This document shows positions 1-15,349 of a stretch of DNA of 64,000 nt, piece after piece. The stretch is from Haemophilus pittmaniae (lineage in GTDB: Bacteria; Pseudomonadota; Gammaproteobacteria; Enterobacterales; Pasteurellaceae), in the NCBI RefSeq assembly GCF_900186995.1, contig NZ_LT906463.1, positions 1,674,001-1,738,000 of the forward strand, read 5' to 3'. Below the pieces are notes generated by a model. It did no database searches, was not told where the DNA came from, and was given only the letters and a program-made list of their open reading frames with translations. A program made the translations under genes and the position numbers. Within the stretch, counting starts at the first letter, position 1. The number at the start of each line of letters is the position of its first letter.

Positions 1-841
1 CTTCAATACGTGAAGTATTATTGACTTCACTTTCCCCTTTAATATAACTTCCTCCACGAGCAATCATTCCACCCTCTTGTCCATGATAACGGCTTAGCTT
101 GTTGGCTCGGAAACCATCAAATACCATTTCGGAAACATTTCCTAATGTATCAAATAAACCCAGCGGATTTGCTTCGAGTAAACCAATAACCTGCAAACGG
201 CCATTTGCATTTTTAGATGACCACGCATAACGGGCAATCCCCTCAGGCATAGGGAAAGTATTTTCACGAAATGCCGCTTCATCAACCGCAACCCCACCAC
301 GGGAGGCGAATTCCCACTCGGCATTAGTCGGTAAACGGACAAAACCTTTACTGCCATCTTCTGTTGGGAGTTTATCGGCTGCATTTTTAAGTAGCCATTC
401 GTTATATTTATGGGTAAATTCTACTGCATCAAACCAGCTAATATTAATCGCTGGTAAGCTTGTTTTCATATTCACCGAAGGACATTGCTCTCCTTTCATT
501 ACGGCATTGAACTGCGCTTCAGTGACTTCATATTTTCCCATTAAGAAATAACGTTCTTGTTTTTCATTGGCGAAGCTACCTGAAATATAATTGGGAGTAG
601 CATATTGAGCATACCCATCCTCATCATTACTATTCCCCCCCAGGGTAACTTTGATATCTTCTAATGGTTTTTTAGTATTCGTTTTAATTACTCGAAAAAC
701 CATATTTCCTTCACAAGGCATAGGTAAAACGACATCACCATCTAATTTTTTCGGATTAAAAAATTTTTCATCCCAAGGTTGGGCTGATACGGCGACACTA
801 GCCACACATAGTGCTAATAAAGAAAATCGGTATTTAAACAT
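1..841 (-). CDS. Formylglycine-generating-enzyme-like (SUMF1/FGE domain) secreted protein, partial
   Basis: Last visible gene of the srf operon, cut by the left edge of the window (280 codons seen, no stop). The start ATG at 839-841 overlaps the stop of the upstream permease gene by 8 bases (ATGTTTAA), so translation is probably coupled. Residues 1-20 form a Sec signal peptide ending near VSA-QPW. From about residue 85 the FGE fold is recognisable by its landmarks: YFLMGKYEVTEAQF, VRLPTNAEWEFASRGG, GLFDTLGNVSEMVFDGF and ARGGSY. True FGEs oxidise a sulfatase cysteine to formylglycine; many family members lack the catalytic cysteines and serve as binding or other modifying modules. The C-terminal part that would decide is outside the window. 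A periplasmic or envelope role is inferred from the signal peptide. Confidence 0.85.
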   Translation of the reverse strand, partial: MFKYRFSLLALCVASVAVSAQPWDEKFFNPKKLDGDVVLPMPCEGNMVFRVIKTNTKKPLEDIKVTLGGNSNDEDGYAQYATPNYISGSFANEKQERYFLMGKYEVTEAQFNAVMKGEQCPSVNMKTSLPAINISWFDAVEFTHKYNEWLLKNAADKLPTEDGSKGFVRLPTNAEWEFASRGGVAVDEAAFRENTFPMPEGIARYAWSSKNANGRLQVIGLLEANPLGLFDTLGNVSEMVFDGFRANKLSRYHGQEGGMIARGGSYIKGESEVNNTSRIE

Positions 842-2042
842 CTCGCAGACTCTCCGCAGGTTGAATCTTTACCGCTCGAATTGCACCAATCGCTGCAACT
901 ACACCAGCAAGTAAAAAAGAGAAAACAAAAGCCAGGCTTAAATGTACAGGAGCCAAACGGCTAACAAAATAAGAACCACTTAGACTTGTTCCTAAAATTT
1001 GATTAAATAATTGACTGCCAAACAAATACAGCCCGTAAGATAGAACAAAAGCAACACTACTAAGTACGATTGCTTGAAAAACCAGATAAATACCAACTGC
1101 ACTCTGTTGAAAGCCTATCAAGCGCAAAACCGCAATATCCTTACGTTTTCTATCAATATTTGCAAGAAATGCGCCAATAAGGGATAGAACACAACCAACC
1201 ACGGAAGTAAATGCGATTACCATAAAAATAATATTTAATACACTATCAATCGCTTTTACATTTTCAATAGCCTTGGATTCTGTGCGAGTATCGATGTGAA
1301 ATTGTTCGCGTAACTTAAGGGCTAAAGGAGCCACATCATCTAAACTTTTGGCATAAATTCTAGCTCTGGCAAAATGCTCACGAGCTTTATCGTTCAACTT
1401 TCCTTTCGCTTCCGGAAAAAGGGCTGTTTGCATACCATCGCGGAAATCTTCAACGCCAATTAACAAAGACATAGGCACAAAAATAGCCGCACGTGGAAAC
1501 TGTTGTTCATTTAAAACAGACTGAACTTTTAATTGCAATAATGCTTTTTCCTCTTGTCCATTTTCATTACGCGTGGCAACCAAAGTAATACTTTCACCCT
1601 GTTTAGTTTGTAGCTTTTCTGCACTTAACGCACTCAAAATAATAGAGTTTTCAGTTTGTAAAGATTGTTGGGTGATTGGATCACCTTCATCCGTTGGAAT
1701 TAATTCTACGTTACGAACAAAATTTGTTCCTTTTTTCAAATCAATAATGGTGTTGAGCGAACGGGTTAAGGGAATAGAAAATTGAGTTTCTGGCTGTTGT
1801 TTAAGCCAGTCAAACCAATTCTGAGAGAGATTTAAATTACCAACTATTTTCACTTCTAAATTAGTCGGATCATTCACTAGTTGATAGCGTAACTGAGAAA
1901 CAATGCCGTATTTCAAACTAAACAGAAGCAATAAAGGCGCAATGACAGCAACTAGAGAAGCAATAATACAAAAAGAAACTTTACGATCATAAAAGAGGTC
2001 GTTTAATGCTAATCTTGCCAATAATACAAATCTATTCTTCAT
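834..2042 (-). CDS. ABC transporter permease, FtsX/MacB-type
   Basis: 402 residues. One N-terminal membrane helix (about 25-48), a large extracytoplasmic domain (about 50-265), then three C-terminal helices: about 270-295 (begins near IIFMVIAFTSVVGCVLSLIG), 315-345 and 370-395. This is the MacB/LolCE/FtsX permease topology. The gene starts 15 bases after the ATPase gene, so the two should form one transporter. MacB/Lol-type systems act on periplasmic or membrane-anchored substrates through conformational coupling rather than passing substrate across the inner membrane. Here the substrate is unknown; the neighbouring signal-peptide proteins (vWA, FGE-like) are natural candidates as partners. 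The protein ends in a MacB-like tail, PAESLRDV. Confidence 0.88.
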   Translation of the reverse strand: MKNRFVLLARLALNDLFYDRKVSFCIIASLVAVIAPLLLLFSLKYGIVSQLRYQLVNDPTNLEVKIVGNLNLSQNWFDWLKQQPETQFSIPLTRSLNTIIDLKKGTNFVRNVELIPTDEGDPITQQSLQTENSIILSALSAEKLQTKQGESITLVATRNENGQEEKALLQLKVQSVLNEQQFPRAAIFVPMSLLIGVEDFRDGMQTALFPEAKGKLNDKAREHFARARIYAKSLDDVAPLALKLREQFHIDTRTESKAIENVKAIDSVLNIIFMVIAFTSVVGCVLSLIGAFLANIDRKRKDIAVLRLIGFQQSAVGIYLVFQAIVLSSVAFVLSYGLYLFGSQLFNQILGTSLSGSYFVSRLAPVHLSLAFVFSFLLAGVVAAIGAIRAVKIQPAESLRDV

Positions 2043-2057
2043 TGAAACGCCCTATTT

Positions 2058-2780
2058 TTACCGGTCATTATTGGTTTGTTCGATAAAACAAGACTGACGT
2101 AACGCCGTATCTAATTTTGCACTAAAGGTACGAAGTTTGTTACGTTGTACCAAATCCCAATCATGGGTAACTAACAAAACAGCGATTTTTTGCTGTTTTG
2201 CTAGGGATAGCATTAAATGAAATAACACCTCTGAGTGATGGGGATCTAATGCAGATGTTGGTTCATCCGCTAATAATAAAAGTGGTTTATGGGAAATTGA
2301 ACGAACAAAAGCTACTCGTTGGCGTTCACCGATAGAAAGCTGTTTGGGATACTTAGCCAACAAATGGCCGATGTTTAGTTTCTCACATAAATGATGCAAC
2401 CAAACTTCATCGGCTAAAATCTCATTAGTTTGACAAGGTAATAGGATATTTTGCCATACGCTTAAAAAAGGCAATAGGCCACCATTTTGCAACATAAATC
2501 CAAGATTCTTTGAGCGAATCTCAGCTAAAGTCTTTTGGTCATTCCCCTGAATAAGGGGAGCTAAATCCATATTCAAAGTAACACAATCAAAATTATATTG
2601 GCTCAAGGTATCGGGCTTTAAAATTAGCCCGATCATTTCTAATAGCGTACTTTTGCCACAACCACTTGAACCGCAAAGAGCAATGACTTCACCTTCGGTT
2701 AAAGATAAATGAGGCAACGAAACCGTAAAACTTTGTTCACCTACCCCACGGGTTATAGATAAATCTTTAATGGCTAGCAC
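2058..2780 (-). CDS. ABC transporter ATP-binding protein (LolD/MacB-like)
   Basis: 240 residues, GTG start at 2780 preceded by AAAGGATG. Walker A is GSSGCGKST (residues about 37-45) and Walker B is LLLLADEPTSALDP. The signature motif reads LSIGE instead of the usual LSGGQ, followed by RQRVAFVRSISHKP. The Q-loop region (FMLQNGGLLPFLSVWQNILLP) is typical of the LolD/MacB/FtsE branch, which pairs with FtsX-fold permeases such as the next gene. It sits 12 bases downstream of the vWA gene. Energises the permease at 834-2042; the substrate cannot be told from sequence. Confidence 0.9.
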   Translation of the reverse strand: MLAIKDLSITRGVGEQSFTVSLPHLSLTEGEVIALCGSSGCGKSTLLEMIGLILKPDTLSQYNFDCVTLNMDLAPLIQGNDQKTLAEIRSKNLGFMLQNGGLLPFLSVWQNILLPCQTNEILADEVWLHHLCEKLNIGHLLAKYPKQLSIGERQRVAFVRSISHKPLLLLADEPTSALDPHHSEVLFHLMLSLAKQQKIAVLLVTHDWDLVQRNKLRTFSAKLDTALRQSCFIEQTNNDR

Positions 2781-2792
2781 GCTACATCCTTT

Positions 2793-4793
2793 TTATGGTA
2801 ACGCATCCAATGGTACTGGATACACATTATCTCGGGGATCCGCACCTTCAGTCAGAGAAATCCAGCGAGATTGATCTTCATTAAAAATACGGTAATGGCG
2901 TAATTTACTATGTAGATCACGAATAAATTTCTCTTGTTCCTGAACGCTCATTCCCTTCCAAGTATCTTCGTCAATTCCAGTCACCTGACTCTTATATGGA
3001 ATACCATCCAAATATTCTCCAAGTAAGCCTAAATCTGCCAATTTAGTTGATTTATCTTCCTTAATTTTATTTGGATCCTGTCCCATAGCGGCAGCCACCG
3101 AACGCAATTGAGCAAACATATCCGTTGGCGAGATCAAACCATTATTTGCTGCATCCGCAATTTTCTTAACAACATCACTTAAATCACTCAACTGCGCCTT
3201 GGTTAATAAAACTCGGGCTTCAGCTGTTGGGATTGTTGGTTTAGCAAAATCACGGTCACTCACCCAGGCTTTAAATACTGGGGGGGCTTTCGTACCTTTT
3301 ACATCACCTAAATAGGCTAACTGCATTGCTTTACCCAATAAAATTGCATCTTCTTCAATTTCTGATTTCTTCTGATCATCGCCTGTTTTCGGTGTAGCAG
3401 TTAACACACTACCGGCAGCCTCTTCTCCTGAGTAAGCCTGTTTTACTTGTGTGGTTAACGCATTAGCAAGAGTATCTACTTTTTGCCCAAACTCATTCAC
3501 ATCTCCCGCATTGACCGAATAGTAAAGCGGTTTATTTAAATAATTATTGAAAGACAATTCATTATATTGTGTTTGAGCTATTTGGTGGTTATTTTTACCT
3601 GATGGAGTTTTAAGGTGCAGCGTATAGATCGCCACACCACGATGTTGAGCCTCTAAACGCAATTGCTTAGCATCTAATCCTGTAGTTGAAATCGGATTAT
3701 CTCCCTCAATCGCGCCGGCATCAGTAATCAACACTAAGTAACGGCCACCAAAATTGTTCCAATTGATTTCATTCAATGCCTGCGATACTCCAGCATAAGC
3801 ATCTTCACTAAATTCTTTTGAAGAAACTACCGCCTGTTTTAGGTTAGCCACTTTATCCATGAAATCCTTGCCATCTTTTACAGTACTTGGATCAACAAAC
3901 ATTTTTGAAGTGTACTCTAATCCAGGTACAGCTTTAGTGCTTGAACGGAATGCCACTAAACCAAATTTAACCTGTTTACCCAGATTCTCTTTTTCGATTT
4001 TTTCATAGACTTTTTTAATCGCATCTCGGGTTCGATTAATGTAGGGATCCATAGAAATCGTCGAATCAATCACAAACACAACAGCTGCGCTAAATCCAAC
4101 AATTTCTTGAGGTTGATTTTGCCCCGCTTTATTTGTTTGATTCCCCGTAGCTGTCGTAGTCGGTTGGGCTACTGGTTTATCATTTTTACTAACCGATGCT
4201 ACTTCTAACAAACGTTCGTAAAATCCTTGGCTATCCATTACTTCTTCACCTTGTAAAACAGGTAATAGATAGAAGTTCTTTTGGAAATCAACAAACTCCT
4301 TTGGCTCTTCCGCTAACACTTTTTCACTGCTTTTTTTCTGGGATAATTCGGCACGAATTGGTTCAACGGCTTTTGCTGGAGAATTATCATTGATGATACC
4401 TTCAAGAGTTGCCTTATCCTTAAAGAACAATAAGGAACCACGATCAGATGGATTGGTAAAGACCATTGTCATTTGCATATTCCAAGGTACTGCGCAGCTG
4501 GCATCCAACCAACCGACAGTTTTACCAAAGCTATCCGGCCCTACCTGTAATAGTTCTTTATTAGCAACATTTTCCCGTTTATATACATAATAGCGGGAAA
4601 ATGCAGGAATTTTTTGACCGCTCTTAGCATCCGTTTTTGCCAACAATTCACAACTTGGCGTACTTAACACACGTTGATAGAGCGTAGTTTTACCTTCTTG
4701 CAGTAACGGTTTACTCTCTTCAGCAAAAACTGATTGAGACATAATCGCAGTCAAACAACAAAGAGATAAAGTAGAAAATCTTAACGGTTTCAT
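2793..4793 (-). CDS. Secreted von Willebrand factor type A (vWA) domain protein of the srf operon
   Basis: 666 residues. Signal peptide 1-24 (cleavage near VFA-EE). Residues about 35-105 resemble a bacterial SH3-like fold (RYYVYKRENV, GKTVGWLDAS), an inference from pattern only. The vWA domain spans about 233-440, with a MIDAS motif DSTIS (243-247) and ITDAG (356-360), so metal-dependent ligand binding is likely. The C-terminal 200 residues are alpha-helical, of unknown fold. The start ATG overlaps the stop of the upstream gene (TAATG), indicating tight coupling. No membrane anchor other than the signal peptide is visible, so it should be periplasmic or exported. vWA proteins commonly act as scaffolds in multi-protein machines; the specific role here is unknown. 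Confidence 0.85.
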   Translation of the reverse strand: MKPLRFSTLSLCCLTAIMSQSVFAEESKPLLQEGKTTLYQRVLSTPSCELLAKTDAKSGQKIPAFSRYYVYKRENVANKELLQVGPDSFGKTVGWLDASCAVPWNMQMTMVFTNPSDRGSLLFFKDKATLEGIINDNSPAKAVEPIRAELSQKKSSEKVLAEEPKEFVDFQKNFYLLPVLQGEEVMDSQGFYERLLEVASVSKNDKPVAQPTTTATGNQTNKAGQNQPQEIVGFSAAVVFVIDSTISMDPYINRTRDAIKKVYEKIEKENLGKQVKFGLVAFRSSTKAVPGLEYTSKMFVDPSTVKDGKDFMDKVANLKQAVVSSKEFSEDAYAGVSQALNEINWNNFGGRYLVLITDAGAIEGDNPISTTGLDAKQLRLEAQHRGVAIYTLHLKTPSGKNNHQIAQTQYNELSFNNYLNKPLYYSVNAGDVNEFGQKVDTLANALTTQVKQAYSGEEAAGSVLTATPKTGDDQKKSEIEEDAILLGKAMQLAYLGDVKGTKAPPVFKAWVSDRDFAKPTIPTAEARVLLTKAQLSDLSDVVKKIADAANNGLISPTDMFAQLRSVAAAMGQDPNKIKEDKSTKLADLGLLGEYLDGIPYKSQVTGIDEDTWKGMSVQEQEKFIRDLHSKLRHYRIFNEDQSRWISLTEGADPRDNVYPVPLDALP

Positions 4794-5806
4794 TATTTTT
4801 TCAATGCCTCTAATTTTTCTTTAGCTGTCGCATTATTTGGATCGTGACTTAATGCTGTTTCATACCAATAAATTGCAGTTTCTTTATCTGCTTGGAAGCA
4901 GCTACTGCCTTTTTCATATTCCGCGGCATAAGCCAGCGCAATCTCTACATTACCACCTTGTGCTTGATTGGCATAAAGTCGCTGAGCAATTGCGCATTTA
5001 TTTGCTTGTTTGGCCGAAGCAATAATTTCTAAAATTTGCTTCGGCTCAGGTTTAGTTTTCAAACAACTTTGAATAAACGCTAATTCATCATTAGTATTTG
5101 CATCAACAGTACAGTCAGATTTTGCAACAGGTTCATCCTTTTTATTTAACAAGAAATAAGCCCCAACGCCCCCGCCAATTAATAAAGCTAAGATTAATGC
5201 AATTAAGCCACCCTTACCTTTTTTCTTAGGTTCTTCTGCAATAGTTATCTTTTCCTGGTTCACCGCTGATTCATTCGGTGTTTCTATTTGCGTTAAATCC
5301 TCAAACTCAATAGCCGGTTCTGCCGCTTGTTCAACCTCAACTACTGCAATGGAATCCTCTTCAACCGGTGTTTCAATCACGGCCTCTGGCTCTGGCTCTG
5401 GCTCAGGTTCATACTGAACGTGGCTTTGTACATTGTCTTCCCGACTAGAATCACCTCCTGCAAGAGAGGCTAAGATATTACCGACCATTCGGACTGGGCC
5501 ATTATCCATAACAGCACTATCATGCACATCACGAACAGACATCATATAACGTACATTACCAATTTGTTGCACAAGGCTATCCACTAACCATTTACCAATA
5601 ACGCCTTGCAATACATCATTTTCTAAATTTAGTCCTTCTACCTTATGCCAAACTGGCTCAGGATTCCATGGATTACCGTTACCATTAAAATAGCAACCAT
5701 CTTGGTTTCTTTGCACTGCAATTTCGACTTCTGCACTTCCACTCCATTTCATCGCAGTAAATTTTGCGTATCCTGGGCGGTCTTCCTCTAATTGAATTCG
5801 TAACAT
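4793..5806 (-). CDS. Single-pass membrane protein with C-terminal TPR/Sel1-like region, srf operon
   Basis: 337 residues. An N-terminal globular domain (1-115) matches no family I recognise. An acidic Glu/Pro linker (about 132-195, including EPEPEPEPE encoded by a hexanucleotide repeat) leads to a lysine patch and one membrane helix (about 200-220, from LIALILALLIGGGVGAYFLL). The C-terminal region 230-337 has TPR/Sel1-like helices (IALAYAAEYEKG, AIYWYETALSHDPNNATAKEKL). Predicted topology is N-terminus in the cytoplasm (positive residues KKKGKGG before the helix) with the TPR part in the periplasm, which would link the cytoplasmic SrfB/SrfC proteins to the periplasmic vWA protein. Starts 10 bases after srfC, with AAGGAA as ribosome binding site. 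Confidence 0.75.
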   Translation of the reverse strand: MLRIQLEEDRPGYAKFTAMKWSGSAEVEIAVQRNQDGCYFNGNGNPWNPEPVWHKVEGLNLENDVLQGVIGKWLVDSLVQQIGNVRYMMSVRDVHDSAVMDNGPVRMVGNILASLAGGDSSREDNVQSHVQYEPEPEPEPEAVIETPVEEDSIAVVEVEQAAEPAIEFEDLTQIETPNESAVNQEKITIAEEPKKKGKGGLIALILALLIGGGVGAYFLLNKKDEPVAKSDCTVDANTNDELAFIQSCLKTKPEPKQILEIIASAKQANKCAIAQRLYANQAQGGNVEIALAYAAEYEKGSSCFQADKETAIYWYETALSHDPNNATAKEKLEALKK

Positions 5807-5816
5807 TTTCTATTCC

Positions 5817-8498
5817 TTAGCATTGTGCGGAACGATATAAATCTAATACCGTTCCTAATTTTGTATTGCTGACCTGATCAATCTCACGACCGGCACTGTG
5901 TCCTGCATTTCCTTCAGCAAAGTGGCCAAAAGCCACAAACCAATCAAAAAGATAATTTTTGGTGTAATTATTAGTTTGGTCGTCCAATTTAGGTAAACCA
6001 TTTATCTTTTCAACTTCCCGATTTTCAAATATAGCCCGTTCATTCATCACACGACTGGCGGGGCGTTGAGATAATGGTTGATTAACAAAATCTAACCAAG
6101 CGATGAAATCGGCAATTTCCGTATTAATGGAAAATACTTGGCGTTCAGCTAATTGGTCACGCTTACTACCGGCATTTTCATTGCGAAAAACAACTTTTGA
6201 AAGTTTATCTTGCAGATGAAGACGATTTGCACCAGTAATCAATTCACCAACTAAACCTTCAACGGTTTCTTTAGAAAAACCAAAAAATTGCATCAAATGC
6301 TGATCCGAGGAAACTGAACGCAAGTGCTCAATCCAGGATTTAAAAGCAGCCATTGAAAAACGAGATTCTACAAGTTTCTCAACTGGTTTTTCTTCTACTA
6401 CAGCAGGTGCCGGTTCAGCAAATAAGTCAAAGCCTTCTGAACCGAAGCCAAAACCAGCATCAAAGGTATTCGTCGAGCTTTCTTGTGCTTTAGTTTTTTC
6501 CTCATCTTTATTCAACAAAATTTCTTCATAATCAGAAAAATATAAAGAACGAATCGTTTCTTCTGGCAATTGAAGACAACGTAAAAATTCACCAACCAAA
6601 AGACCTTTTTTACTGAATTCAGCAACAATCATTTGTGCCAATTGGCGTTTTTTATTCACCTCTTCGGCACCTTCACTTTGATACCAAGAAGAAAAACGGT
6701 TTTCTACAATGTGATGAATACATTCATTAAGTTGCTCGGTTAAACGTTGAGTCTTCACTTCTGGCAAAGCAATAGTTTTCAAATAATCACTAATTCGCTG
6801 CATACCGCCATCATTCAGTTTCATCATAGCGTCCCAAGCTTCTAGCGGCTGAGCAACATGTTTTTGAATATCCGGATCATTCGCAAAAGTGCTACGCAAA
6901 AGATTAAGCTGACCAGCTTCTTTGGCATTGATAGCTAATTCTTCGGTATTATCCATATCTAAGAAAGCGACTTTAAAACCAGGTTTACGTACTAAAAAAA
7001 CATTATCAAAAGGCTTACCATTCGCCCATTCATTTAACCACGTATAGTTTCCAAAGCGTTCTAAAATTGTTTGTTTCAGTAATCCGCCCTGTCCCCAAGA
7101 CATTTTTAGCATATCTTCATCTTTGCCCAAGTCACTACTGATACGCATATCAAACATCGTTATTGCCCAAAGTAAGCCTGGTTTACGTTTTGCCCGATCA
7201 ATCGGATTATCCCCTTGGGTTTTATTGATCCAACGTTCTAATACAGGTCCTACACTATTTACATCAGATTGCTTGGTTGATGGTGTACAAACAACCAAAA
7301 TATTCATTTCTTGGCTGTCGGTATAGCGTTCAAAGAGATAAGCCACCTTACCCCGTAAAATAAGCTGAGATACCGGATTACCCTCTTTCACTTCACTCAA
7401 CGAAGTAATGGCTAAACGCCCGCGGTAGCCGGGAAAATCCAATAAATCCACGGTCTCAACAGCTGGCACTCGAGTTGGATTAATCAACGGGAAAACCAAT
7501 TCAGCGGTCAATGCGGTTAATTCAGCCAAGGAAATAGAAACAGGTTCACCGACTAGCCCTTCTTCAATAAACGGACGAACAGCAATTTGTTCATCTCTAT
7601 TGGTCCCCAAACGCTCAAGCATATCTACGTTCATAATACTGTCTGCCTGAGAAAGGCCTCCACTACCATTATCTTTAACAACAGCAGTAAGCGGTGCATA
7701 AACCCGTTCAGGATTACCTAATTGGAAAAGTGTTTTAGCAAACCGGATATAAATTTGTGTCAATTCTGGAATTTCGGCCCATAACACAGAAAATAATGTC
7801 GCACGATCTTCGATATTTAGGCGAGGAGCCATTGCAACCGCTCGCGCCCAGTAATTCGCTTGCAATACAGATAAAGATTTACCGAAACTTTCTTGTGCAT
7901 AATCCTGTAAATCAACCACATCATCTTCATTAACCCCTTTTATCCGCTGTGCATTGAGCTTAGCGTTTAACGGTTTTAGAATTTCATTAATGCGGGATTG
8001 CTCCAATTGATAAGTCACCCGTTCTTTATCAAAATCGTTGAAATAAGCATTAACTAAAATCTTGGCAACTTCAATTTCATGGAACAAACGTAATTCCAAA
8101 GGATAACCACTGACTGCAGCTTTAGCCGAACGAGTAAAACGGGTAACCAAACCGGTTGCCTCTTTACCACCGCCAGGTGGATTAACATGTTTAATAAAAT
8201 CCAGTTGTTGTCCATCAAAAATGGTTTCTAGATTTCCTTTTTGATCTGCTGCCAATGCGGAAATTAAAAAAGACTTTCCTGCTTGAGACAAGCCAAAAAA
8301 ACCGGCAGTGATCGGTTTGGAAGAAACTGCACCAAGACGTTTTGCCGTATTACGTAAACGTCTTAATTCAAGGATTAAACCATCCGCCTCATTATTTAAA
8401 CGAGCAACATTTGGGCGAACATCATTTACCCAATCAATCGCTTGTTGTGATGCTTGGAATACCTTATCCCAAGAGGTTGTTAATTGATTATCCGTCAT
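5817..8498 (-). CDS. srfC: SrfC-family putative virulence factor, large P-loop GTPase
   Basis: About 893 residues. The frame is open from a GTG at 8510, but AGGTGG lies at the right distance before the ATG at 8498, which I prefer. In the longer numbering the G1 loop is GLSQAGKS (73-80), G3 is DFPG (358-361, in VDLLDFPGYRGR), and LLWAITMFDMR occupies the G4 position, where the usual NKxD is degenerate (TMFD). A large insertion separates G1 and G3. This is the organisation of SrfC (Virul_Fac family), encoded with srfA and srfB in Salmonella, where the operon was found as SsrB-regulated. Biochemical function is not established. Probably a cytoplasmic or membrane-associated switch working with SrfB. 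Confidence 0.88.
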   Translation of the reverse strand: MTDNQLTTSWDKVFQASQQAIDWVNDVRPNVARLNNEADGLILELRRLRNTAKRLGAVSSKPITAGFFGLSQAGKSFLISALAADQKGNLETIFDGQQLDFIKHVNPPGGGKEATGLVTRFTRSAKAAVSGYPLELRLFHEIEVAKILVNAYFNDFDKERVTYQLEQSRINEILKPLNAKLNAQRIKGVNEDDVVDLQDYAQESFGKSLSVLQANYWARAVAMAPRLNIEDRATLFSVLWAEIPELTQIYIRFAKTLFQLGNPERVYAPLTAVVKDNGSGGLSQADSIMNVDMLERLGTNRDEQIAVRPFIEEGLVGEPVSISLAELTALTAELVFPLINPTRVPAVETVDLLDFPGYRGRLAITSLSEVKEGNPVSQLILRGKVAYLFERYTDSQEMNILVVCTPSTKQSDVNSVGPVLERWINKTQGDNPIDRAKRKPGLLWAITMFDMRISSDLGKDEDMLKMSWGQGGLLKQTILERFGNYTWLNEWANGKPFDNVFLVRKPGFKVAFLDMDNTEELAINAKEAGQLNLLRSTFANDPDIQKHVAQPLEAWDAMMKLNDGGMQRISDYLKTIALPEVKTQRLTEQLNECIHHIVENRFSSWYQSEGAEEVNKKRQLAQMIVAEFSKKGLLVGEFLRCLQLPEETIRSLYFSDYEEILLNKDEEKTKAQESSTNTFDAGFGFGSEGFDLFAEPAPAVVEEKPVEKLVESRFSMAAFKSWIEHLRSVSSDQHLMQFFGFSKETVEGLVGELITGANRLHLQDKLSKVVFRNENAGSKRDQLAERQVFSINTEIADFIAWLDFVNQPLSQRPASRVMNERAIFENREVEKINGLPKLDDQTNNYTKNYLFDWFVAFGHFAEGNAGHSAGREIDQVSNTKLGTVLDLYRSAQC

Positions 8499-8510
8499 TT
8501 TATCTTCCAC

Positions 8511-11500
8511 CTATCGTTTCACACAGCCAGTATCTAACCAGTATAATTTTTGATCGCCAAGCCCTGCATCTGTCATTGTATTTAGATGAAGGGTAATATC
8601 CCTTTCACGCACACAAGAACGCCCATTCGATGCGGTCACATTTTTAATATAGAAATTTTCCGCTCTTTCTTTACTATTACGGCTGTTTTTTATACCTAAA
8701 GTAACCTGCAATACTACGCCTTCATTGTTCAACATAGCTTTCCACTCTCGGCTTTCAATAGAAAGCATATAAAGTGGAGATGCGACCCAACGTTCCACAT
8801 TTAATTGACGGAAACCTAAACGGGTATCACCACGAACTTCAAAGGAAGTATCAGGGAAATCATAGTCTTCATTATCTAAATCAATATCGCGATAATAGAC
8901 ATTGCTATCTTTAATCACATTATTGTTATCCAAGTAGCCAATGTATTTCACTGTGGAATAAGCGGTCATTGCCATTGAACGCAAATAGAAATTTGTTAAA
9001 CGCATGTCTTTACATAAGAAGCAAAGCATCGCGCCTACTGCTGCAGTAGTTTTTGGATCATCTATGCGACCTTGTTTATGGAATGGATACCAGTTTCCCG
9101 TACGATAATGGTGCAACGGTAAAATCCGCCCTACCGGTAAAGGTAAACGGGAACGGAAAAAGGATTGCACTCCCGGTAAACGGGATGGGCGACCGGTCAG
9201 TAATAGCACATCACATTGATAGCTGTTGACTACCTCGCACAAGGCATTAAAGGTCTTGCAAATATCAAAATAATCACCACGAATAAACAAACTGTGGATA
9301 CGCTCTAAATTCACCTGAACCGGTAAATTCAAAATATTAAAATCAGAAGAGCCCAAAGCACGACGAATTGGTTCATTAATATAATCCAATACACTTTCTG
9401 TCGGTTGCTCTACATCCTCTAATAATTCTGCAAAGGTTTTTCCATTTAATGCATTGGTCTTTTGCATCGGATCATAGCCTTCGTATTCTTTCAATACGCG
9501 CAAACCGATCGGGCTGAATACTTGTAATGTTAATTGTTGACGCAGTAGCGCATCCTGTACTTTTAACGCCTGATCACCAATCAATTCAGAAAGAATCGGT
9601 TCCGGATCACGCAAGCCGGCATTTTTCAAGCCAACAGTTAAGGATTCCACCACCACATTACGAATCATATCCAGCAAAATATCATCGCCCGCCACTTTGA
9701 AGCCATCGCGGAAACGTTGAGTCGGGATAATATAGGCGTTACTGCCAGAGCCACCGTTTTCCCCATAATCAAGGGAATAATCGTTGATTACCAAGTCGGT
9801 TGTGCCACCGCCAATATCAACTGTCGCGATAGTAATACGATCCTTTTCTTTTTTATCCGGACGCTGCAATGCGGCAATAAATTCCTCCGGACGACCGCCA
9901 TAGTTATTCTGTGTTTCATTGAATAGATAGACGACTTGTCCACAGGTTGCTTCATCCCATTGAATAATTACTTCCGGTAAAATCGGCCAATATTTTTCCC
10001 TTGCAGTTTGCGAATTGAAGTCAAAGTCATCATCGGATTTATCCCAACCAAGAGATTTCCATACTAAACCGATAGCCTGGTAAATGGATTGACGGAAAAT
10101 TTCTCGTTCAGGTTTTGGCATTGCCGGTGGCACGGTCAAGATAATTGAACGTAAGAAACGCGGTGCTTTGGAATGTTCTAATTTAGCCCGTTGAGCTGGA
10201 CTATTAATTTGCATCAACGCCTGCATTAAGACTTCTGACAACATAAATGTCATCAAGGAACGACGGGAATATTTAGGTTGGAATACCGGCATTTTACGTT
10301 CGAACTCTTCATCAATATCGTCCCGCAAAATATGTAATGCTTCGCCATACTCATTGATTAATCCGGAAAGCGGATCGGCCGTTGCATAAGGTTCATAATC
10401 GGTTTTCACATAGGAAGAGTTAAAACGCCAACCCTGTTCATAGCGGGCATCGTCCCATAAGTAACGTTTCGGGCTAGATAAACCGGTTGAGCCTTCATTA
10501 CCTTCACGACGGCTTGCCAAACGGGCGGCTTCCTTACCGACACGGGCAATGGTCGCCCATTGGAAAGCATCGCGTCGGCCACTTTGTACAGAAAAATGAT
10601 CTTTGCCAAAAAACGCTTGAGCAAATTCAACGCGACTTTCAAATGGTTCAGAATACACACGTTCCGGACGGGTCAAATCACGTAATTCCAATTCGTAGCG
10701 TTTTTTCAACCCATCTTTTTCCTGCACGTGATCCTCAATTAAAATACCACAGGTACGGGAATTACCGACATCCAATACCATATCCACCGGAATAGCACGG
10801 TTAATTTCATCGGAACGATTAGAAATCATTTTAATGCGCGGAATATCAATTTCTTCGCCAAGAATCGCCAACACATTCAAATAATGGCCTTGGTGGAATT
10901 TCGCAACAATATCGGTTTTCAAATCATCTGGATGAATTTTTAAGCGATCATTTTCCGGAGCCAATTCGGTAAAGAGCTCCAGCAACCACTCATTTACCCA
11001 TTTATAATCTAAAAACCATGACATCTGGTGGGATTGGTAAGCGAGTCCAAAAACCGCACCGGAACGCACATCTTCTTCAGTCGGCGCAAGGTAAGCAACA
11101 TCCGCACGGTTTGGGAAAATTTTGGTATCAAAAGCTAAAGTAACACGATAAGTATTACCTTCTACATCCGGCTCAGCCAATTTAACAATGCGTGCTCGCG
11201 CCCAGTTATAAGGACCTTCATCAAAACCATCGGTCGAAGCCACCGTACGTAATACCGGAATGGGTAGCCAAACGCCATCCAATAATTTGAAAGACTGCTC
11301 TACGCTGATTTCATGCTCTACTTTGACCATACGGCTCAAATCACTACTATCGCAATAACCTTCGCCACTACGGTGTTCAACTAAACGACGAATCGGATGG
11401 TTTTCACCGCCAGAGGCAAAGTTTCCCATGCTTTTGCTGCGCCACTCTTTGTCTTTCCAATCAATTTTTAAACCGAAGTCTAAAAATTGCACCCCACTAT

Positions 11501-11549
11501 TCATAATCAGTGAGATTTCTTTTCCGTAATGATGTAGTTCCGGTAACAT
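8511..11549 (-). CDS. srfB: SrfB-family virulence factor, actin/Hsp70-fold ATPase
   Basis: 1012 residues. The actin/Hsp70/sugar-kinase nucleotide-binding motifs are in order: phosphate-1 DVGNSRT (260-266), phosphate-2 DIGGGTTD (578-585) and an adenosine-type motif LLTGRPSRLPGV (783-794). The first 250 residues are an SrfB-specific domain. No signal peptide or membrane helix, so cytoplasmic. Its stop TAG abuts srfC directly. SrfB is known by family name from the Salmonella srfABC operon; its activity has not been defined there as far as I know. The nucleotide motifs imply ATP binding and possibly polymer formation or chaperone-like cycling, which is inference. Confidence 0.9.
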   Translation of the reverse strand: MLPELHHYGKEISLIMNSGVQFLDFGLKIDWKDKEWRSKSMGNFASGGENHPIRRLVEHRSGEGYCDSSDLSRMVKVEHEISVEQSFKLLDGVWLPIPVLRTVASTDGFDEGPYNWARARIVKLAEPDVEGNTYRVTLAFDTKIFPNRADVAYLAPTEEDVRSGAVFGLAYQSHQMSWFLDYKWVNEWLLELFTELAPENDRLKIHPDDLKTDIVAKFHQGHYLNVLAILGEEIDIPRIKMISNRSDEINRAIPVDMVLDVGNSRTCGILIEDHVQEKDGLKKRYELELRDLTRPERVYSEPFESRVEFAQAFFGKDHFSVQSGRRDAFQWATIARVGKEAARLASRREGNEGSTGLSSPKRYLWDDARYEQGWRFNSSYVKTDYEPYATADPLSGLINEYGEALHILRDDIDEEFERKMPVFQPKYSRRSLMTFMLSEVLMQALMQINSPAQRAKLEHSKAPRFLRSIILTVPPAMPKPEREIFRQSIYQAIGLVWKSLGWDKSDDDFDFNSQTAREKYWPILPEVIIQWDEATCGQVVYLFNETQNNYGGRPEEFIAALQRPDKKEKDRITIATVDIGGGTTDLVINDYSLDYGENGGSGSNAYIIPTQRFRDGFKVAGDDILLDMIRNVVVESLTVGLKNAGLRDPEPILSELIGDQALKVQDALLRQQLTLQVFSPIGLRVLKEYEGYDPMQKTNALNGKTFAELLEDVEQPTESVLDYINEPIRRALGSSDFNILNLPVQVNLERIHSLFIRGDYFDICKTFNALCEVVNSYQCDVLLLTGRPSRLPGVQSFFRSRLPLPVGRILPLHHYRTGNWYPFHKQGRIDDPKTTAAVGAMLCFLCKDMRLTNFYLRSMAMTAYSTVKYIGYLDNNNVIKDSNVYYRDIDLDNEDYDFPDTSFEVRGDTRLGFRQLNVERWVASPLYMLSIESREWKAMLNNEGVVLQVTLGIKNSRNSKERAENFYIKNVTASNGRSCVRERDITLHLNTMTDAGLGDQKLYWLDTGCVKR

Positions 11550-11586
11550 TTTTATTCTCGCTTCTATTCGTTATTTATTGGTTCAC

Positions 11587-13194
11587 TTAATTCGATTTCA
11601 TTGTCATTGGGAAACCCTGTCCGCTACCGTATCCGCCTTGGCAATCGGCAACGCTGGTTGCACCCGGTTTACAAATCACTTCAGGTAACTGATAGCTTGA
11701 ACCATCACTACACTTGGCCACGCCTTTATTAGCAATATTCAAACCATTACCTTGCATTTTTGCAGAAACATCGCCGGTACATTGTACACCGTCACCACGT
11801 TGTACTTGCACTTGGCCAACACCATCAGAGAATGCATAACTTAAGCGTAACGGTTTGCCGGTAGTTTTATCCTGAATACCGGCTCCAGCATTCCAACGAC
11901 CATTTAAGAAATCCACGTTGCCGTTTTGCGTACTGGCAGTCGGAATTTGTAATGGTTTCGCATTACCGGACGTTGGACTGGTTGCATTGTTATTCGCCGG
12001 GATATTTTTAGCATCGCCGGATGCTGTCGGATTATTTTTGCTATCCGCAGTATTTAGATTAGCATTTGGATTGCCATTATTTTGATCTGCTTTGATATCC
12101 GCTTTATTATTTTCAGCTAATGGATCGACCGGCGGTTGTGGCGCATTTCCAGCCATTTTATTTTCATCCGCTTTGATATCCCCAGCTTTATCGTTGTTTA
12201 ACGCATCCACTTTAATATCATCGGTTGTTGGTAAAAGTGAATTAACATCTCCCGACACATTTCCTTCACCAACCACCGGTGCCGTATTCAAATTATTTAA
12301 AATGGAAGAATCCGTTACCGATACCCCGTTATGATCAACCCAACGGCCATTTAAGTAACGGTAAAGTGCCTCATTCAATTTACGAGCTTCTTTTTCCTTA
12401 GGCTTTTTCGGTTTTTTCGCTTTTTGCTCTTTCGGTTCGGAAACAGTCACCGGCTCATTCTTCACAACAGTATCTTCTTTTGGCCACCATAAATCTTTAA
12501 ACCACCAAGCCAATAATAAGAGTAATCCGAGTAACAATGGCAATACCCACCAAAAGACGCGACAAGGGTGTTTTTTCTCGATAACAGGTTCAATCGGTGC
12601 TGCGACTGCTGGTGCAATCGGTATGCTCGGCGCAACCGGTTTTGGCTCTGCAGCCTGTAGAGATAAAAACGGATTGCCATGCGCCGCAGCATGTTTTTCA
12701 AGAAATCCCCAGAAGGTGATCACCGGACGATCATTGACTAAATAAACATGTTCAGGATTAGGAAAGCGCAGGGCTTTAAGGTTTTCAGGATCGGTAATAT
12801 CGTCAGGATTGCCGCCACAGAGTAAACGGGCAAATAACAGTTGGTCGCCTTTGGAGGTGGGAGATTGAATCAGTTCCTTGCCGAGCTCCAGCACAGTACG
12901 TTCAAAAACTTTCAATTCAGCCCTGGCGGTTTCACGTTCCTCTTCAGTGGCTGAAGTCCAAGGAATAATCATATATTGCCCATCGGCACGGGTAGAATCA
13001 AAGGGCACATACCAATCAATCTTATCCCCTTGTTCATTGCGCTGCGGAATTGCTAAATATTCTGCAAAGGAACGACCACGTTTAAACTTAATCGCATCCC
13101 GCAATTGGGAGGCTACCGTATAAACGGCCATGCCATCCTGGCCTAATGGCGTATAGTCTTTGATTTCGCCACTTCTCAACAATGCACTCAACAT
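11587..13194 (-). CDS. srfA: SrfA-family membrane protein, first gene of the srf operon
   Basis: 535 residues, ATG at 13194 with GGAGC upstream. The N-terminal 180 residues are the conserved SrfA part (LLRSGEIKDYTPLGQDGMAV, SFAEYLAIPQRNEQGDKIDW, VIPW-type motifs) and are probably cytoplasmic. One membrane helix lies at 213-232, flanked by a KKHPCR patch. A long Asn/Asp/Lys-rich low-complexity linker (about 300-425, with repeated DIKAD) follows, then a small C-terminal domain (about 430-535) with several cysteines that may be beta-rich and periplasmic. Recognition as SrfA rests on the N-terminal motifs and the srfA-srfB-srfC order. A shared intergenic region separates it from the divergent importer genes. 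Confidence 0.82.
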   Translation of the reverse strand: MLSALLRSGEIKDYTPLGQDGMAVYTVASQLRDAIKFKRGRSFAEYLAIPQRNEQGDKIDWYVPFDSTRADGQYMIIPWTSATEEERETARAELKVFERTVLELGKELIQSPTSKGDQLLFARLLCGGNPDDITDPENLKALRFPNPEHVYLVNDRPVITFWGFLEKHAAAHGNPFLSLQAAEPKPVAPSIPIAPAVAAPIEPVIEKKHPCRVFWWVLPLLLGLLLLLAWWFKDLWWPKEDTVVKNEPVTVSEPKEQKAKKPKKPKEKEARKLNEALYRYLNGRWVDHNGVSVTDSSILNNLNTAPVVGEGNVSGDVNSLLPTTDDIKVDALNNDKAGDIKADENKMAGNAPQPPVDPLAENNKADIKADQNNGNPNANLNTADSKNNPTASGDAKNIPANNNATSPTSGNAKPLQIPTASTQNGNVDFLNGRWNAGAGIQDKTTGKPLRLSYAFSDGVGQVQVQRGDGVQCTGDVSAKMQGNGLNIANKGVAKCSDGSSYQLPEVICKPGATSVADCQGGYGSGQGFPMTMKSN

Positions 13195-13496: not shown

Positions 13497-13553
13497 AAAA
13501 AATCGATAAAGGGGTTACAATCCGTCACCTACATTGTGGATATCGGGATATTT

Positions 13554-14540
13554 ATGGATAAACAAAAATTACTTTTTTCCCTCCTCTTACTCTTACTGCT
13601 ATTTCTTTGCCTGCTTTCACTTTCGCTCGGGCGATTCTCTATTCCATTGAGCGATACCCTGGAAATTCTGTTGGGGCAACAAGATAACGAGATTCAACGC
13701 AATATCATTTTTAATCTACGTTTACCACGTATACTCGCCGCGATTTTGGTCGGCGCCTCCCTAGCTATTGCCGGTGTGGTATATCAAGGTATTTTTCGCA
13801 ATCCATTGGTTTCACCGGATATTTTAGGGGTATCTAATGGCGCTTGTGTTGGGGCTGCATTAGCGATTTCAATCGGTTCGGGCATGCTGGGTATTCAAGC
13901 CTTTGCCTTTGTCGGTGGTTTGATTGCCGTCTTGCTCACCATGAATTTACCACGTTTAATTCAACGCGACTCCACCATTGTTTTAGTGCTTTCCGGCATT
14001 ATCGTTTCAGGTTTTATGATGGCGACATTAGGCCTCTTGAAATACCTTGCAGATCCCGAAACCCAGCTGGCTGATATTGTGTATTGGCAATTAGGGAGCC
14101 TAACCAAATCCAACTACGACAACTTACTCGTACTTTCACCAATCATTTTACTCACCACTCTTGGCTTATTTTTAATGCGTTGGCGCATTAACGTACTTTC
14201 CTTGGGCGATCGAGAGGCGAAATTAATTGGGGCAAATATTCGATTAGAGAGAGGTTTAATGGTGGTTTGTGCCACGTTACTGACAGCTTCATCGGTTTGT
14301 TTAAGCGGGACGATTGGTTGGCTTGGTTTAGTCATTCCGCATTTAGCGCGACTTTTTATCGGTGATAACAATGTCAAAAGCTTACCGCTTGCCGGACTTA
14401 TTGGTGCAATATTCTTGCTCGTAATCGATACTCTCGCCCGCAATTTATATATTCAAGAAATTCCGCTCGGCATTCTCACCGGCTTTATCGGTGCACCATT
14501 TTTTGCTTGGGTACTGATTAAACAAAAGGTGGTGGACTAA
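13554..14540 (+). CDS. FecCD/BtuC-family ABC transporter permease
   Basis: About 328 residues from ATG 13554; an in-frame GTG at 13536 has no ribosome binding site. Roughly ten membrane helices and the family signature LRLPRILAAILVGASLAIAG near residue 60, with GIFRNPLVSPDILGVSNGA following. Inner-membrane channel of a class II importer for chelated metals or, in the H. influenzae MolBCA system, molybdate/tungstate. The stop overlaps the next ATG (TAATG). The downstream molbindin and the ModE-like site favour molybdate, but siderophore-iron or nickel chelates are not excluded. Confidence 0.88.
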   Translation: MDKQKLLFSLLLLLLLFLCLLSLSLGRFSIPLSDTLEILLGQQDNEIQRNIIFNLRLPRILAAILVGASLAIAGVVYQGIFRNPLVSPDILGVSNGACVGAALAISIGSGMLGIQAFAFVGGLIAVLLTMNLPRLIQRDSTIVLVLSGIIVSGFMMATLGLLKYLADPETQLADIVYWQLGSLTKSNYDNLLVLSPIILLTTLGLFLMRWRINVLSLGDREAKLIGANIRLERGLMVVCATLLTASSVCLSGTIGWLGLVIPHLARLFIGDNNVKSLPLAGLIGAIFLLVIDTLARNLYIQEIPLGILTGFIGAPFFAWVLIKQKVVD

Positions 14541-15328: not shown

Positions 15329-15349
15329 CCCCACTAGAAGGAAATTCAT

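What the first reader, a model, noticed from the sequence alone, without database searches (positions are those of the whole stretch)
1..13194. Eight-gene srf operon: actin-like ATPase, GTPase, vWA, ABC exporter and FGE-like protein as one candidate machine
Seen: eight same-strand genes with overlaps or gaps of at most about 40 bases, in the order srfA, srfB (actin/Hsp70 motifs), srfC (P-loop GTPase), membrane TPR protein, secreted vWA protein, LolD-like ATPase, FtsX/MacB-like permease, secreted FGE-like protein. Known: srfABC were named as SsrB-regulated genes in Salmonella and have no settled function. Inference: SrfB/SrfC act in the cytoplasm, SrfA and the TPR protein span the membrane, and the vWA and FGE-like proteins with the Mac/Lol-type transporter act in the periplasm, making a trans-envelope system. 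The downstream five-gene module is what may be undescribed.
Basis: partly seen in the sequence, partly recalled or inferred. Interest (0 to 1): 0.75.

Follow-up and report, generated by a model that had tools for sequence, protein, structure and literature searches.

The report
Srf operon: envelope-sensor dynamin machine
An eleven-gene operon joins a cell-envelope damage sensor, otherwise known as the trigger of a bacterial weapon, to an Hsp70-like and a dynamin-like protein, and the shorter version known from Salmonella looks like a stripped-down relic of it.

Summary
The operon is real and longer than reported: eleven minus-strand genes, three beyond the window's left edge. The downstream module is not undescribed: ABC ATPase, permease, FGE-like protein and glycine-zipper lipoprotein match TagT, TagS, TagR and TagQ of the type VI secretion (T6SS) threonine-phosphorylation pathway, and the vWA protein matches the whole non-kinase half of the kinase PpkA (577-590 bits, 6 of 6 T6SS loci). 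Campbell 2013 already reported srf/tag linkage in Deltaproteobacteria. The link is general: 41 of 60 fetched srfB loci, 22 genera, 9 family groups. It does not serve a T6SS here: the window genome and 26 of 41 module-bearing genomes lack the sheath gene. New here: SrfB models as Hsp70-like, SrfC as dynamin-like; one clade has Zorya-type ZorA/ZorB instead of Tag genes; stand-alone srfABC (Salmonella type) is one nested clade whose SrfC P-loop is usually eroded (6 of 22 intact, against 62 of 62 other loci). Best reading: envelope damage signals through the Tag module to an SrfA-anchored Hsp70/dynamin effector at the inner membrane. The function is inferred.

The parts
11587..13194 (-). srfA, 535 aa; N-terminal domain predicted in the cytosol, one TM (aa 213-231), periplasmic C-terminal part
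   Evidence: NF040486 SrfA_fam 338 bits; TM by hydropathy
8511..11549 (-). srfB, 1012 aa, Hsp70/actin-superfamily ATPase; D260-G262-N263, D578, GGGTTD and G786/P788 invariant in 28 aligned sequences
   Evidence: PF07520 1394 bits; alignment A1; model pLDDT 87, pTM 0.90; PDB hits Hsp70/DnaK, best E 2.8e-14
5817..8510 (-). srfC, 897 aa, dynamin-like GTPase; P-loop GLSQAGKS
   Evidence: PF10139 1130 bits; model pLDDT 83, pTM 0.72; PDB hits SynDLP, BDLP, mitofusin, best E 5.7e-8
   Evidence: TM aa 201-219; TPR only under cut-off; hhalign of its family to the protein in the same place of Zor-type loci, prob 54, E 1.3e-4
2793..4793 (-). secreted VWA protein, 666 aa = non-kinase half of PpkA without the kinase
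   Evidence: PF00092; profile positions 18-24 to 656 of 656 match the PpkA C-terminal ~620 aa, 577-590 bits in 6 of 6 T6SS loci
2058..2780 (-). TagT-like ABC ATPase, 240 aa
   Evidence: PF00005; 235-249 bits to T6SS TagT, 6 of 6 loci
834..2042 (-). TagS-like FtsX/LolC-type permease, 402 aa
   Evidence: PF02687; strong matches only in srf loci, T6SS Tag loci and one other genome of 398
1..841 (-). TagR-like FGE-fold secreted protein, first part (full length 526 aa, L002 10841-9261); lacks Cys after GFR
   Evidence: PF03781 126 bits on full length; 294-306 bits to T6SS TagR, 6 of 6 loci
1..1 (-). Operon continues outside the window (L002 = G000:C1:1664001-1675500): TagQ-like glycine-zipper lipoprotein 9261-8530; lipoprotein 8520-8035; SrfA-like/TM/VWA protein 7938-6460
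   Evidence: the position given here is only the window edge

Best explanation
The operon encodes one trans-envelope machine. Its sensor half is a Tag-type envelope-damage module: OM lipoprotein TagQ-like, periplasmic FGE-fold pseudoenzyme TagR-like, ABC complex TagTS-like, and the non-kinase half of PpkA as a free secreted VWA protein. Its effector half is cytosolic: SrfB, an Hsp70-like ATPase, and SrfC, a dynamin-like GTPase, held at the inner membrane by SrfA, the TM protein and the SrfA-like VWA protein. Proposed working order: local outer-membrane damage is sensed by the TagQ/TagR/VWA layer; TagTS couples it across the inner membrane; instead of a kinase phosphorylating Fha to fire a T6SS, the signal reaches the SrfA-type membrane proteins and lets SrfC assemble and hydrolyse GTP at the membrane under the site (remodelling, sealing or walling-off), with SrfB loading or disassembling it. 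Shown here: homologies, order, conservation, topology, predicted folds, independence from T6SS. Inferred: signal direction, SrfC polymerisation, SrfB as its chaperone, the biological benefit.
For: Tag homology: strong permease matches occur in 15 of 398 phylum genomes: 8 srf genomes (all 8 have SrfB), 6 T6SS genomes and G403 (two pieces); the next best hit is 46.6 bits. VWA/PpkA, ATPase, permease, FGE-like and glycine-zipper relatives lie together in 6 of 6 T6SS loci; L063 reads TssM-TagF-PP2C-PpkA-TagT-S-R-Q-TssA-B-C (Pfam), and VipB lies on the same contig within about 17 kb in 6 of 6. The Tag pathway senses outer-membrane damage in Pseudomonas aeruginosa (PMC11881912, passages). System unity: 41 of 60 loci; none of the 12 stand-alone genomes is among the 222 genomes with any permease match (7 are printed with zero, 5 are unlisted), so the module is missing, not moved. 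Folds: SrfB Hsp70-like; all 11 SrfC hits with E<=1e-3 are dynamin superfamily. Functional coupling: SrfC P-loop GKS in 62 of 62 loci outside the stand-alone class, GK[ST] in 6 of 22 stand-alone ones. Sensor swap: a single clade of 4 loci has ZorA/ZorB instead, one of them only by a weak partial match. In print: SrfA, SrfB and SrfC form a heteromeric complex by native PAGE and co-IP (PMC6950479, abstract).
Against: No experiment on this operon. No kinase, FHA or PP2C among the 11 genes, so how the signal crosses the membrane is open. SrfC fold matches have low TM-scores (0.14-0.24 by query for E<=1e-3); membrane binding was not tested. Neither SrfB nor SrfC hits Pfam Hsp70 or dynamin models at E<=1. 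Stand-alone srfABC persists in f18 (Enterobacteriaceae-type loci) with the SrfB motif intact, so at least part of the function does not need the Tag module or an intact P-loop; 6 of 22 stand-alone loci even keep the P-loop. A study reports Xenorhabdus Srf proteins to be cytotoxic to cultured cells, which a cytosolic machine does not predict. Four srf VWA proteins fall outside the main srf clade. Several srf loci have neither Tag nor Zor genes in the stretch read (L020, L080, L085, L086, L088).
Confidence: 0.5

Rival explanations
1. SrfABC is a secreted multipart toxin/effector, and the Tag-like module controls or performs its release (the reading of the Xenorhabdus work and the suggestion of Campbell 2013).
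For: Cytotoxicity of Xenorhabdus SrfA/B/C lysates and proteins, and a tripartite complex (PMC6950479, abstract and part 1); Campbell 2013 suggests PpkA may trigger SrfC export.
Against: No signal peptide seen on SrfB or SrfC; Hsp70-like and dynamin-like folds; the module's relatives are a signalling pathway, not an exporter; carriers include Methylococcus capsulatus, Vreelandella and Terasakiella; 26 of 41 module-bearing genomes lack a T6SS sheath gene.
Confidence: 0.13
2. It is an anti-phage defence system: the Tag or Zor module senses phage-induced envelope disturbance and the dynamin/Hsp70 pair blocks entry or kills the cell.
For: Replacement of the Tag genes by ZorA/ZorB relatives (PADLOC E 1e-28 to 7e-56 for L053/L054; own profiles for L126); patchy distribution, 15 of 121 in the own family; presence on 142 of 72,556 plasmid records.
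Against: No PADLOC model hits SrfA, SrfB, SrfC, the TM protein, VWA or (cut) FGE-like protein at E<=1; none in 50,697 phage records; near-core in one family group, 47 of 56 genomes, unlike typical defence genes; flanks were not scanned for defence islands.
Confidence: 0.15
3. It is a surface-contact or motility system: the module senses surface or envelope strain and Srf proteins adjust swarming or cell-surface state.
For: Salmonella srfC mutant swarms poorly but swims normally; the operon is under FlhDC (PMC4219756, passages). srfB, srfC and the next locus tag are all raised in an acapsular Pasteurella multocida strain in a study of Fis (PMC2816674, passages).
Against: The Salmonella type is the derived stand-alone form with eroded P-loop, so its phenotype may not represent the full system; whether the carriers swarm was not tested.
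Confidence: 0.12
4. The Tag genes are left over from, or still serve, a T6SS; adjacency to srfABC is incidental.
For: Clear homology to TagTSRQ/PpkA; 15 of 41 module-bearing genomes do have a T6SS sheath gene.
Against: No T6SS sheath gene in the window genome or in 26 of 41 module-bearing srf genomes; no kinase; 30 of 34 srf VWA proteins form one clade apart from the T6SS clade; module beside srf in 9 family groups.
Confidence: 0.04

Closest known systems
TagQRST-PpkA envelope-damage pathway of the Pseudomonas aeruginosa H1-T6SS (threonine phosphorylation pathway)
   Same: ABC ATPase, permease, FGE-fold protein, glycine-zipper lipoprotein and the whole non-kinase half of PpkA are homologous to those of six unnamed T6SS genomes, in the same order. 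The four T6SS TagR proteins read also lack Cys after GFR. That these six loci equal the P. aeruginosa genes rests on gene order and names from papers, not on a direct comparison.
   Different: No kinase, phosphatase or FHA partner; output genes are srfABC, not tss; extra TM protein, second lipoprotein (no match in 6 of 6 T6SS loci) and SrfA-like VWA protein; mostly a separate clade.
Salmonella-type srfABC
   Same: SrfA, SrfB, SrfC families and order; SrfB motif GGGTTD kept in 22 of 22 stand-alone loci.
   Different: Lacks all eight further genes; SrfC shorter (710-820 aa) and its P-loop GK[ST] lost in 16 of 22 loci; one clade nested among Tag-bearing forms.
srf/tag neighbourhood of host-associated Deltaproteobacteria (Campbell et al. 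2013, PMC3608642)
   Same: srfB, srfC, tagQ, ppkA, tagR, tagS, tagT listed in one neighbourhood.
   Different: The paper also names a ligA and a Hap-like gene and treats PpkA as a kinase; the passages read give no fold for SrfB/SrfC, no Zor variant and no long/short comparison.
Bacterial dynamin-like proteins (SynDLP, BDLP) and mitofusins
   Same: Best structural matches of the SrfC model.
   Different: No Pfam dynamin hit; low TM-scores; membrane binding untested.
Zorya ZorA/ZorB motor
   Same: Takes the place of the Tag genes beside srfABC in one clade.
   Different: Absent from the window operon; ZorC/ZorD not searched for separately in those loci.

Membership tests
SrfABC family | SrfA (NF040486), SrfB (PF07520), SrfC (PF10139) adjacent in that order | tested here: met
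   338, 1394 and 1130 bits, all over cut-off
T6SS threonine phosphorylation pathway (TagQRST-PpkA-PppA-Fha) | TagT, TagS, TagR homologs in order | tested here: met
   235-249 / 327-346 / 294-306 bits between srf profiles and 6 of 6 T6SS loci
T6SS threonine phosphorylation pathway (TagQRST-PpkA-PppA-Fha) | TagQ outer-membrane lipoprotein | tested here: met
   Lipobox LAGC; Rick_17kDa_Anti 23.8 bits, just under the 24.2 cut-off; 56-61 bits cross-match in 6 of 6 loci. Outer-membrane placement itself not tested
T6SS threonine phosphorylation pathway (TagQRST-PpkA-PppA-Fha) | PpkA with cytosolic Ser/Thr kinase domain | tested here: not met
   VWA protein has a signal-peptide-like N-terminus and no kinase hit; PpkA of L063 has Pkinase at aa 12-254
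T6SS threonine phosphorylation pathway (TagQRST-PpkA-PppA-Fha) | PppA phosphatase and Fha protein in the cluster | tested here: not met
   No PP2C or FHA among the 11 genes
T6SS threonine phosphorylation pathway (TagQRST-PpkA-PppA-Fha) | A T6SS to control | tested here: not met
   No PF05943 match in the window genome; 6 of 6 T6SS control genomes positive
Hsp70 superfamily | Hsp70-type nucleotide-binding fold with phosphate motifs | tested here: met
   Foldseek to DnaK/Hsp70, DnaK NBD alone TM 0.67 by target; motif residues invariant in 28 sequences
Hsp70 superfamily | Recognised by the Pfam HSP70 sequence model | tested here: not met
   Only PF07520 at E<=1
Hsp70 superfamily | Substrate-binding domain and J-protein/nucleotide-exchange partners | tested here: inconclusive
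   C-terminal strand-rich region in the model; no partner test
Dynamin superfamily | Dynamin-type GTPase domain with helical stalk | tested here: inconclusive
   All 11 hits with E<=1e-3 are dynamins, but TM-scores are low; P-loop present
Dynamin superfamily | Recognised by the Pfam dynamin sequence model | tested here: not met
   No dynamin family among SrfC hits at E<=1
Dynamin superfamily | GTP-dependent oligomerisation and membrane remodelling | not testable with these tools
   needs purified protein
Functional FGE (formylglycine-generating enzyme) | Catalytic cysteine after GFR (motif recalled) | tested here: not met
   No Cys in the three residues after G[FLVI]R in 36 of 39 FGE-like proteins; motif not found in 3
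Known anti-phage defence system | Match to a PADLOC model | tested here: not met
   None for SrfA, SrfB, SrfC, TM, VWA, FGE-like (280-aa part) at E<=1; ATPase and permease gave hits that I read as generic

The most novel reading that the evidence does not exclude
Srf is a new class of bacterial envelope-emergency machine: an Hsp70-dynamin effector pair (SrfB/SrfC) plugged into interchangeable envelope sensors (TagQRST plus kinase-less PpkA in most lineages read, ZorAB in one clade, a kinase/FHA set in a Desulfovibrio). It assembles at the inner membrane under a wound or phage/T6SS entry site. The T6SS retaliation sensor and the srf sensor share one origin, and the srfABC known from Salmonella is a remnant that lost its sensor and then mostly its GTPase site.
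Probability: 0.3. Interest if true: 0.88.

Novelty: new variant of a known kind. Interest (0 to 1): 0.72.

Why it matters
SrfA, SrfB and SrfC have carried the label 'virulence factor' without a settled function, studied largely in a form that this evidence marks as derived and probably GTP-site-damaged. The full system gives a testable hypothesis (damage-triggered recruitment of a dynamin by a sensor with known behaviour in Pseudomonas) and points to harmless organisms in which to test it. It also suggests that the T6SS 'tit-for-tat' sensor is a general module wired to different outputs, which makes its unknown signal accessible in simpler contexts, including stand-alone VWA-ABC-permease loci.

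Tried and rejected
Considered and dropped. (1) TM protein-VWA gene fusion in L096 (894 aa ORF): only a start-site over-extension, no second domain. (2) Toxin-export reading of the ABC pair: the strong permease matches are srf and T6SS-Tag genomes plus G403 (L069, with an S41 peptidase); the strong VWA matches add stand-alone loci. (3) PADLOC defence match: none for the srf-specific proteins. (4) Solved-structure sequence searches: SrfB nothing useful (best E 0.58); FGE-like protein 16 hits with E<=1, best 1.2e-9, several named formylglycine-generating enzyme or PorK/GldK, some unrelated by name. (5) Recent acquisition by composition: GC 0.39-0.42 over the operon against 0.38-0.46 elsewhere in the window, no clear anomaly. 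(6) Promoter/terminator scan: fewer promoter-like sites than in shuffles (23 against 35.9), terminators as in shuffles, uninformative. (7) VIA-align library not available. (8) Trees are quick LG+G4 with several long branches; the SrfB outgroup was not one side of a branch, so the direction of loss rests on deep nesting only.

Limits of counts. The 60 loci come from 59 of 73 genomes with an SrfB match. Thirteen of the other 14 were fetched later, annotated and are not in the 60: 8 show VWA, ABC, permease and FGE (L127-L130, L132, L133, L135, L136); L131 the same with FGE cut at the stretch end; L134 and L137 are cut by contig ends; L125 has srfB in two ORFs, srfC, then 1.9 kb with only minus-strand ORFs before its contig ends; L138 is a fragment. 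G568 (under cut-off) was not fetched. Among the 20 loci, SrfC was readable in 19 and its P-loop ends in GKS in all 19. The GGGTTD string of SrfB is missing in 4 of 85 loci, none stand-alone: GGGTSD in L055, L061, L074; L093 is incomplete. Some named and unnamed loci are the same species (identical SrfB: L025/L073, L051/L079). VWA tree: 79 sequences cut to 60, about one per genus. SrfB tree: 66 rows, about one per genus of the 60, with L084, L093, L123, L125, L127-L138 left out; 'tag' was the default label there and includes rows whose module was only partly seen or lay beyond the contig (such as L124). Reading of f3 as Succinivibrionaceae, f27 as Orbaceae and the own family as Pasteurellaceae is inference or recall, not a tool result.

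Full report
1. What is there. The minus strand of window 1-13194 holds srfA, srfB, srfC, a single-TM protein, a secreted VWA protein, an ABC ATPase, an FtsX-type permease and the start of an FGE-like gene. The window edge cuts the eighth gene. The genome beyond (L002) shows it is 526 aa and is followed, after a 1-base overlap, a 9-base and a 96-base gap, by a glycine-zipper lipoprotein (243 aa), a second lipoprotein (161 aa) and a 492-aa protein with SrfA-like N-terminal part, one TM and a VWA domain; then come plus-strand genes. So the operon has eleven genes. Families: PF07520 1394 bits, PF10139 1130 bits, SrfA_fam 338 bits, VWA, ABC_tran, FtsX, FGE-sulfatase. The TPR label is under cut-off.

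2. Is it one system? PF07520 is found in 15 of 121 genomes of the own family, 57 of 295 of the order, 22 of 398 of the phylum (21 over cut-off) and 47 of 56 of family group f3. I read 60 loci from 59 of the 73 genomes found with profiles started from the window operon. VWA, ATPase, permease and FGE-like genes follow srfC, in that order, in 39 of 60; a 40th (L055) is cut by its contig end after the permease and a 41st (L019) has the module on a second contig (L070). These 41 cover 22 genera in 9 family groups. Sixteen loci, all in f18, have srfABC alone. Two (L053, L054) have other partners, and one (L020) has only the TM protein.

3. What the module is. An alignment of 16 srf permeases searched against 398 phylum genomes gives strong matches in 15: eight srf genomes, six genomes of one family group, and G403 (two pieces); the next best is 46.6 bits, and the weaker hits listed are nearly all on the C-terminal part alone. 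In the six, an ORF of 990-1164 aa is followed by the ATPase (235-249 bits), permease (327-346), FGE-like protein (294-306) and glycine-zipper protein (56-61), 6 of 6. Pfam on L063 shows IcmF/TssM, TagF, PP2C, protein kinase (aa 12-254 of the long ORF), then ImpA, VipA and VipB on the far side; the other five were not scanned, but a VipB match lies on the same contig within about 17 kb in all six. The long ORF is PpkA (kinase shown in L063), and its C-terminal ~620 residues match the srf VWA profile from position 18-24 to the end (656), 577-590 bits, 6 of 6. The srf module is therefore TagT-TagS-TagR-TagQ plus the non-kinase half of PpkA. In a VWA tree the six T6SS rows form one clade (100), 30 of 34 srf rows another (99), and 16 of 19 stand-alone rows a third (100); four srf rows on long branches lie elsewhere. 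The FGE-like proteins (36 of 39 readable), and the four T6SS TagR proteins read, have no Cys after GFR (the canonical motif is recalled), so they are probably not active FGE.

4. Not for a T6SS. PF05943 is absent from the window genome, from 14 of the 15 own-family srf genomes and from 26 of all 41 module-bearing genomes; 15 of the 41 have one, and six of six T6SS genomes are positive. No kinase, PP2C or FHA lies among the eleven genes.

5. What the srf core is. SrfB models well (28 sequences, pLDDT 87.3, pTM 0.90), and the 50 PDB matches shown are Hsp70-family entries apart from two ciliary central-pair chains whose titles do not name the molecule (best E 2.8e-14; DnaK NBD alone TM 0.67 by target). 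SrfC (pLDDT 83.2, pTM 0.72) matches SynDLP, BDLP, mitofusin, Fzo1 and MxB; all 11 hits with E<=1e-3 are dynamin superfamily, though TM-scores are low (0.14-0.24 by query). Neither is found by the Pfam models of those families. Two searches gave no paper that links SrfC with dynamin or SrfB with Hsp70 in the bacterial sense, judged from the listings (open-licence library only).

6. Long and short forms. Across 84 loci with a readable SrfC, the P-loop ends in GKS in 62 of 62 loci outside the stand-alone class (with Tag, Zor or other partners, or partners unseen), but GK[ST] survives in only 6 of 22 stand-alone loci; the rest read AKA, GKA, GKH, GKQ or GKN (a few species are counted twice). Nineteen further loci, none of f18, all read GKS. 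In the SrfB tree the 17 stand-alone rows form one clade (100) inside Tag-bearing rows (with L035+L050 at 86; with L033 at 100), and the four Zor rows form one clade (100). None of the 12 stand-alone genomes is among the genomes with a permease match (7 printed with zero, 5 unlisted). G350 carries both forms (L034, L035). The simplest reading: the module was lost once and SrfC's nucleotide site then decayed in most lines, while SrfB's motif GGGTTD stayed (22 of 22).

7. Swapped sensors. In L053, L054 and L126 srfABC is followed by ZorA/ZorB relatives (PADLOC ZorA1 E 1e-31/1e-28 and ZorB1 E 4e-45/7e-56 for L053/L054; own two-sequence profiles for L126); L121 ends in a weak ZorA-like start. The small protein after srfC in these loci aligns weakly with the N-domain of the TM protein (hhalign prob 54, E 1.3e-4; the other nine families gave 0.048 or worse). 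A Desulfovibrio locus (L085) has srfB-srfC-TM protein followed by three FHA proteins, a PP2C and a kinase. An Acetofilamentum MAG (L090) has SrfB/SrfC beside VWA proteins that hit TssR_VWA.

8. Mechanism. In Pseudomonas aeruginosa the TagQRST-PpkA pathway is reported to sense outer-membrane damage and to act through PpkA dimerisation (PMC11881912, passages). Keeping the sensor and the non-kinase half of PpkA but replacing kinase-Fha-T6SS by SrfA-anchored Hsp70-like and dynamin-like proteins suggests a damage-triggered membrane effector. Co-IP of SrfA, SrfB and SrfC (PMC6950479, abstract) and joint up-shift of three consecutive locus tags from srfB in a P. multocida strain (PMC2816674, passages) fit one machine. 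What the effector does is inference.

9. Known or new. The srf/tag neighbourhood is in print (PMC3608642, passages; PMC6950479). The listings of my paper searches showed nothing on the kinase-less PpkA assignment, the fold assignments, the Zor variant or the long/short decay pattern, though not each was searched by itself; the Zorya modularity paper has no 'srf' in its main text. I file it as a new variant of a known kind.

Noticed in passing
L053 12257-13804 and 18329-19300; L054 10569-12125 and 15479-16372; L126: srfABC joined to Zorya-type ZorA/ZorB relatives plus three unknown genes, in place of the Tag module; L121 perhaps the same but cut by its contig end.
   Followed up: partly
L097-L115: Nineteen loci with VWA and FtsX permease, mostly with ABC ATPase and a small TM protein, no srf match; two (L112, L113) also show an FGE match and L115 a glycine-zipper match. 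No T6SS profile was run on these stretches. Relatives of PpkA's non-kinase half with no known output.
   Followed up: partly
L069 6120-15284: VWA-ATPase-permease-FGE-two lipoproteins followed by an S41 peptidase, in a genome (G403) not among the SrfB matches and without a T6SS sheath gene.
   Followed up: no
L085 17893-23120: Desulfovibrio srf locus followed by three FHA proteins, a PP2C phosphatase and a Ser/Thr kinase.
   Followed up: no
L090 1192-7523: Two VWA proteins matching TssR_VWA (PF20782), the model named for TssR, beside SrfB/SrfC in an Acetofilamentum MAG.
   Followed up: no
plasmid records, e.g. L116, L117: SrfB on 142 of 72,556 plasmid records, 114 of them Klebsiella; in two read, the long operon with a further SrfA-like/VWA-type gene upstream of srfA.
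   Followed up: partly
L118 6647-18522: Rahnella plasmid: stand-alone srfABC about 3 kb upstream of hscC (Hsp70 family) and a J-domain gene.
   Followed up: no
L003, L005, L006, L009, L012, L036-L040 and others: The last gene (SrfA-like with VWA) is followed by a second copy in many own-family and f27 loci.
   Followed up: no
window 13536-16384: Divergent FecCD permease, ABC ATPase and periplasmic binding protein genes: an iron/cobalamin-type uptake operon.
   Followed up: no
L002 801-4642: mukE, mukF and a YadA-type trimeric autotransporter gene left of the operon.
   Followed up: no
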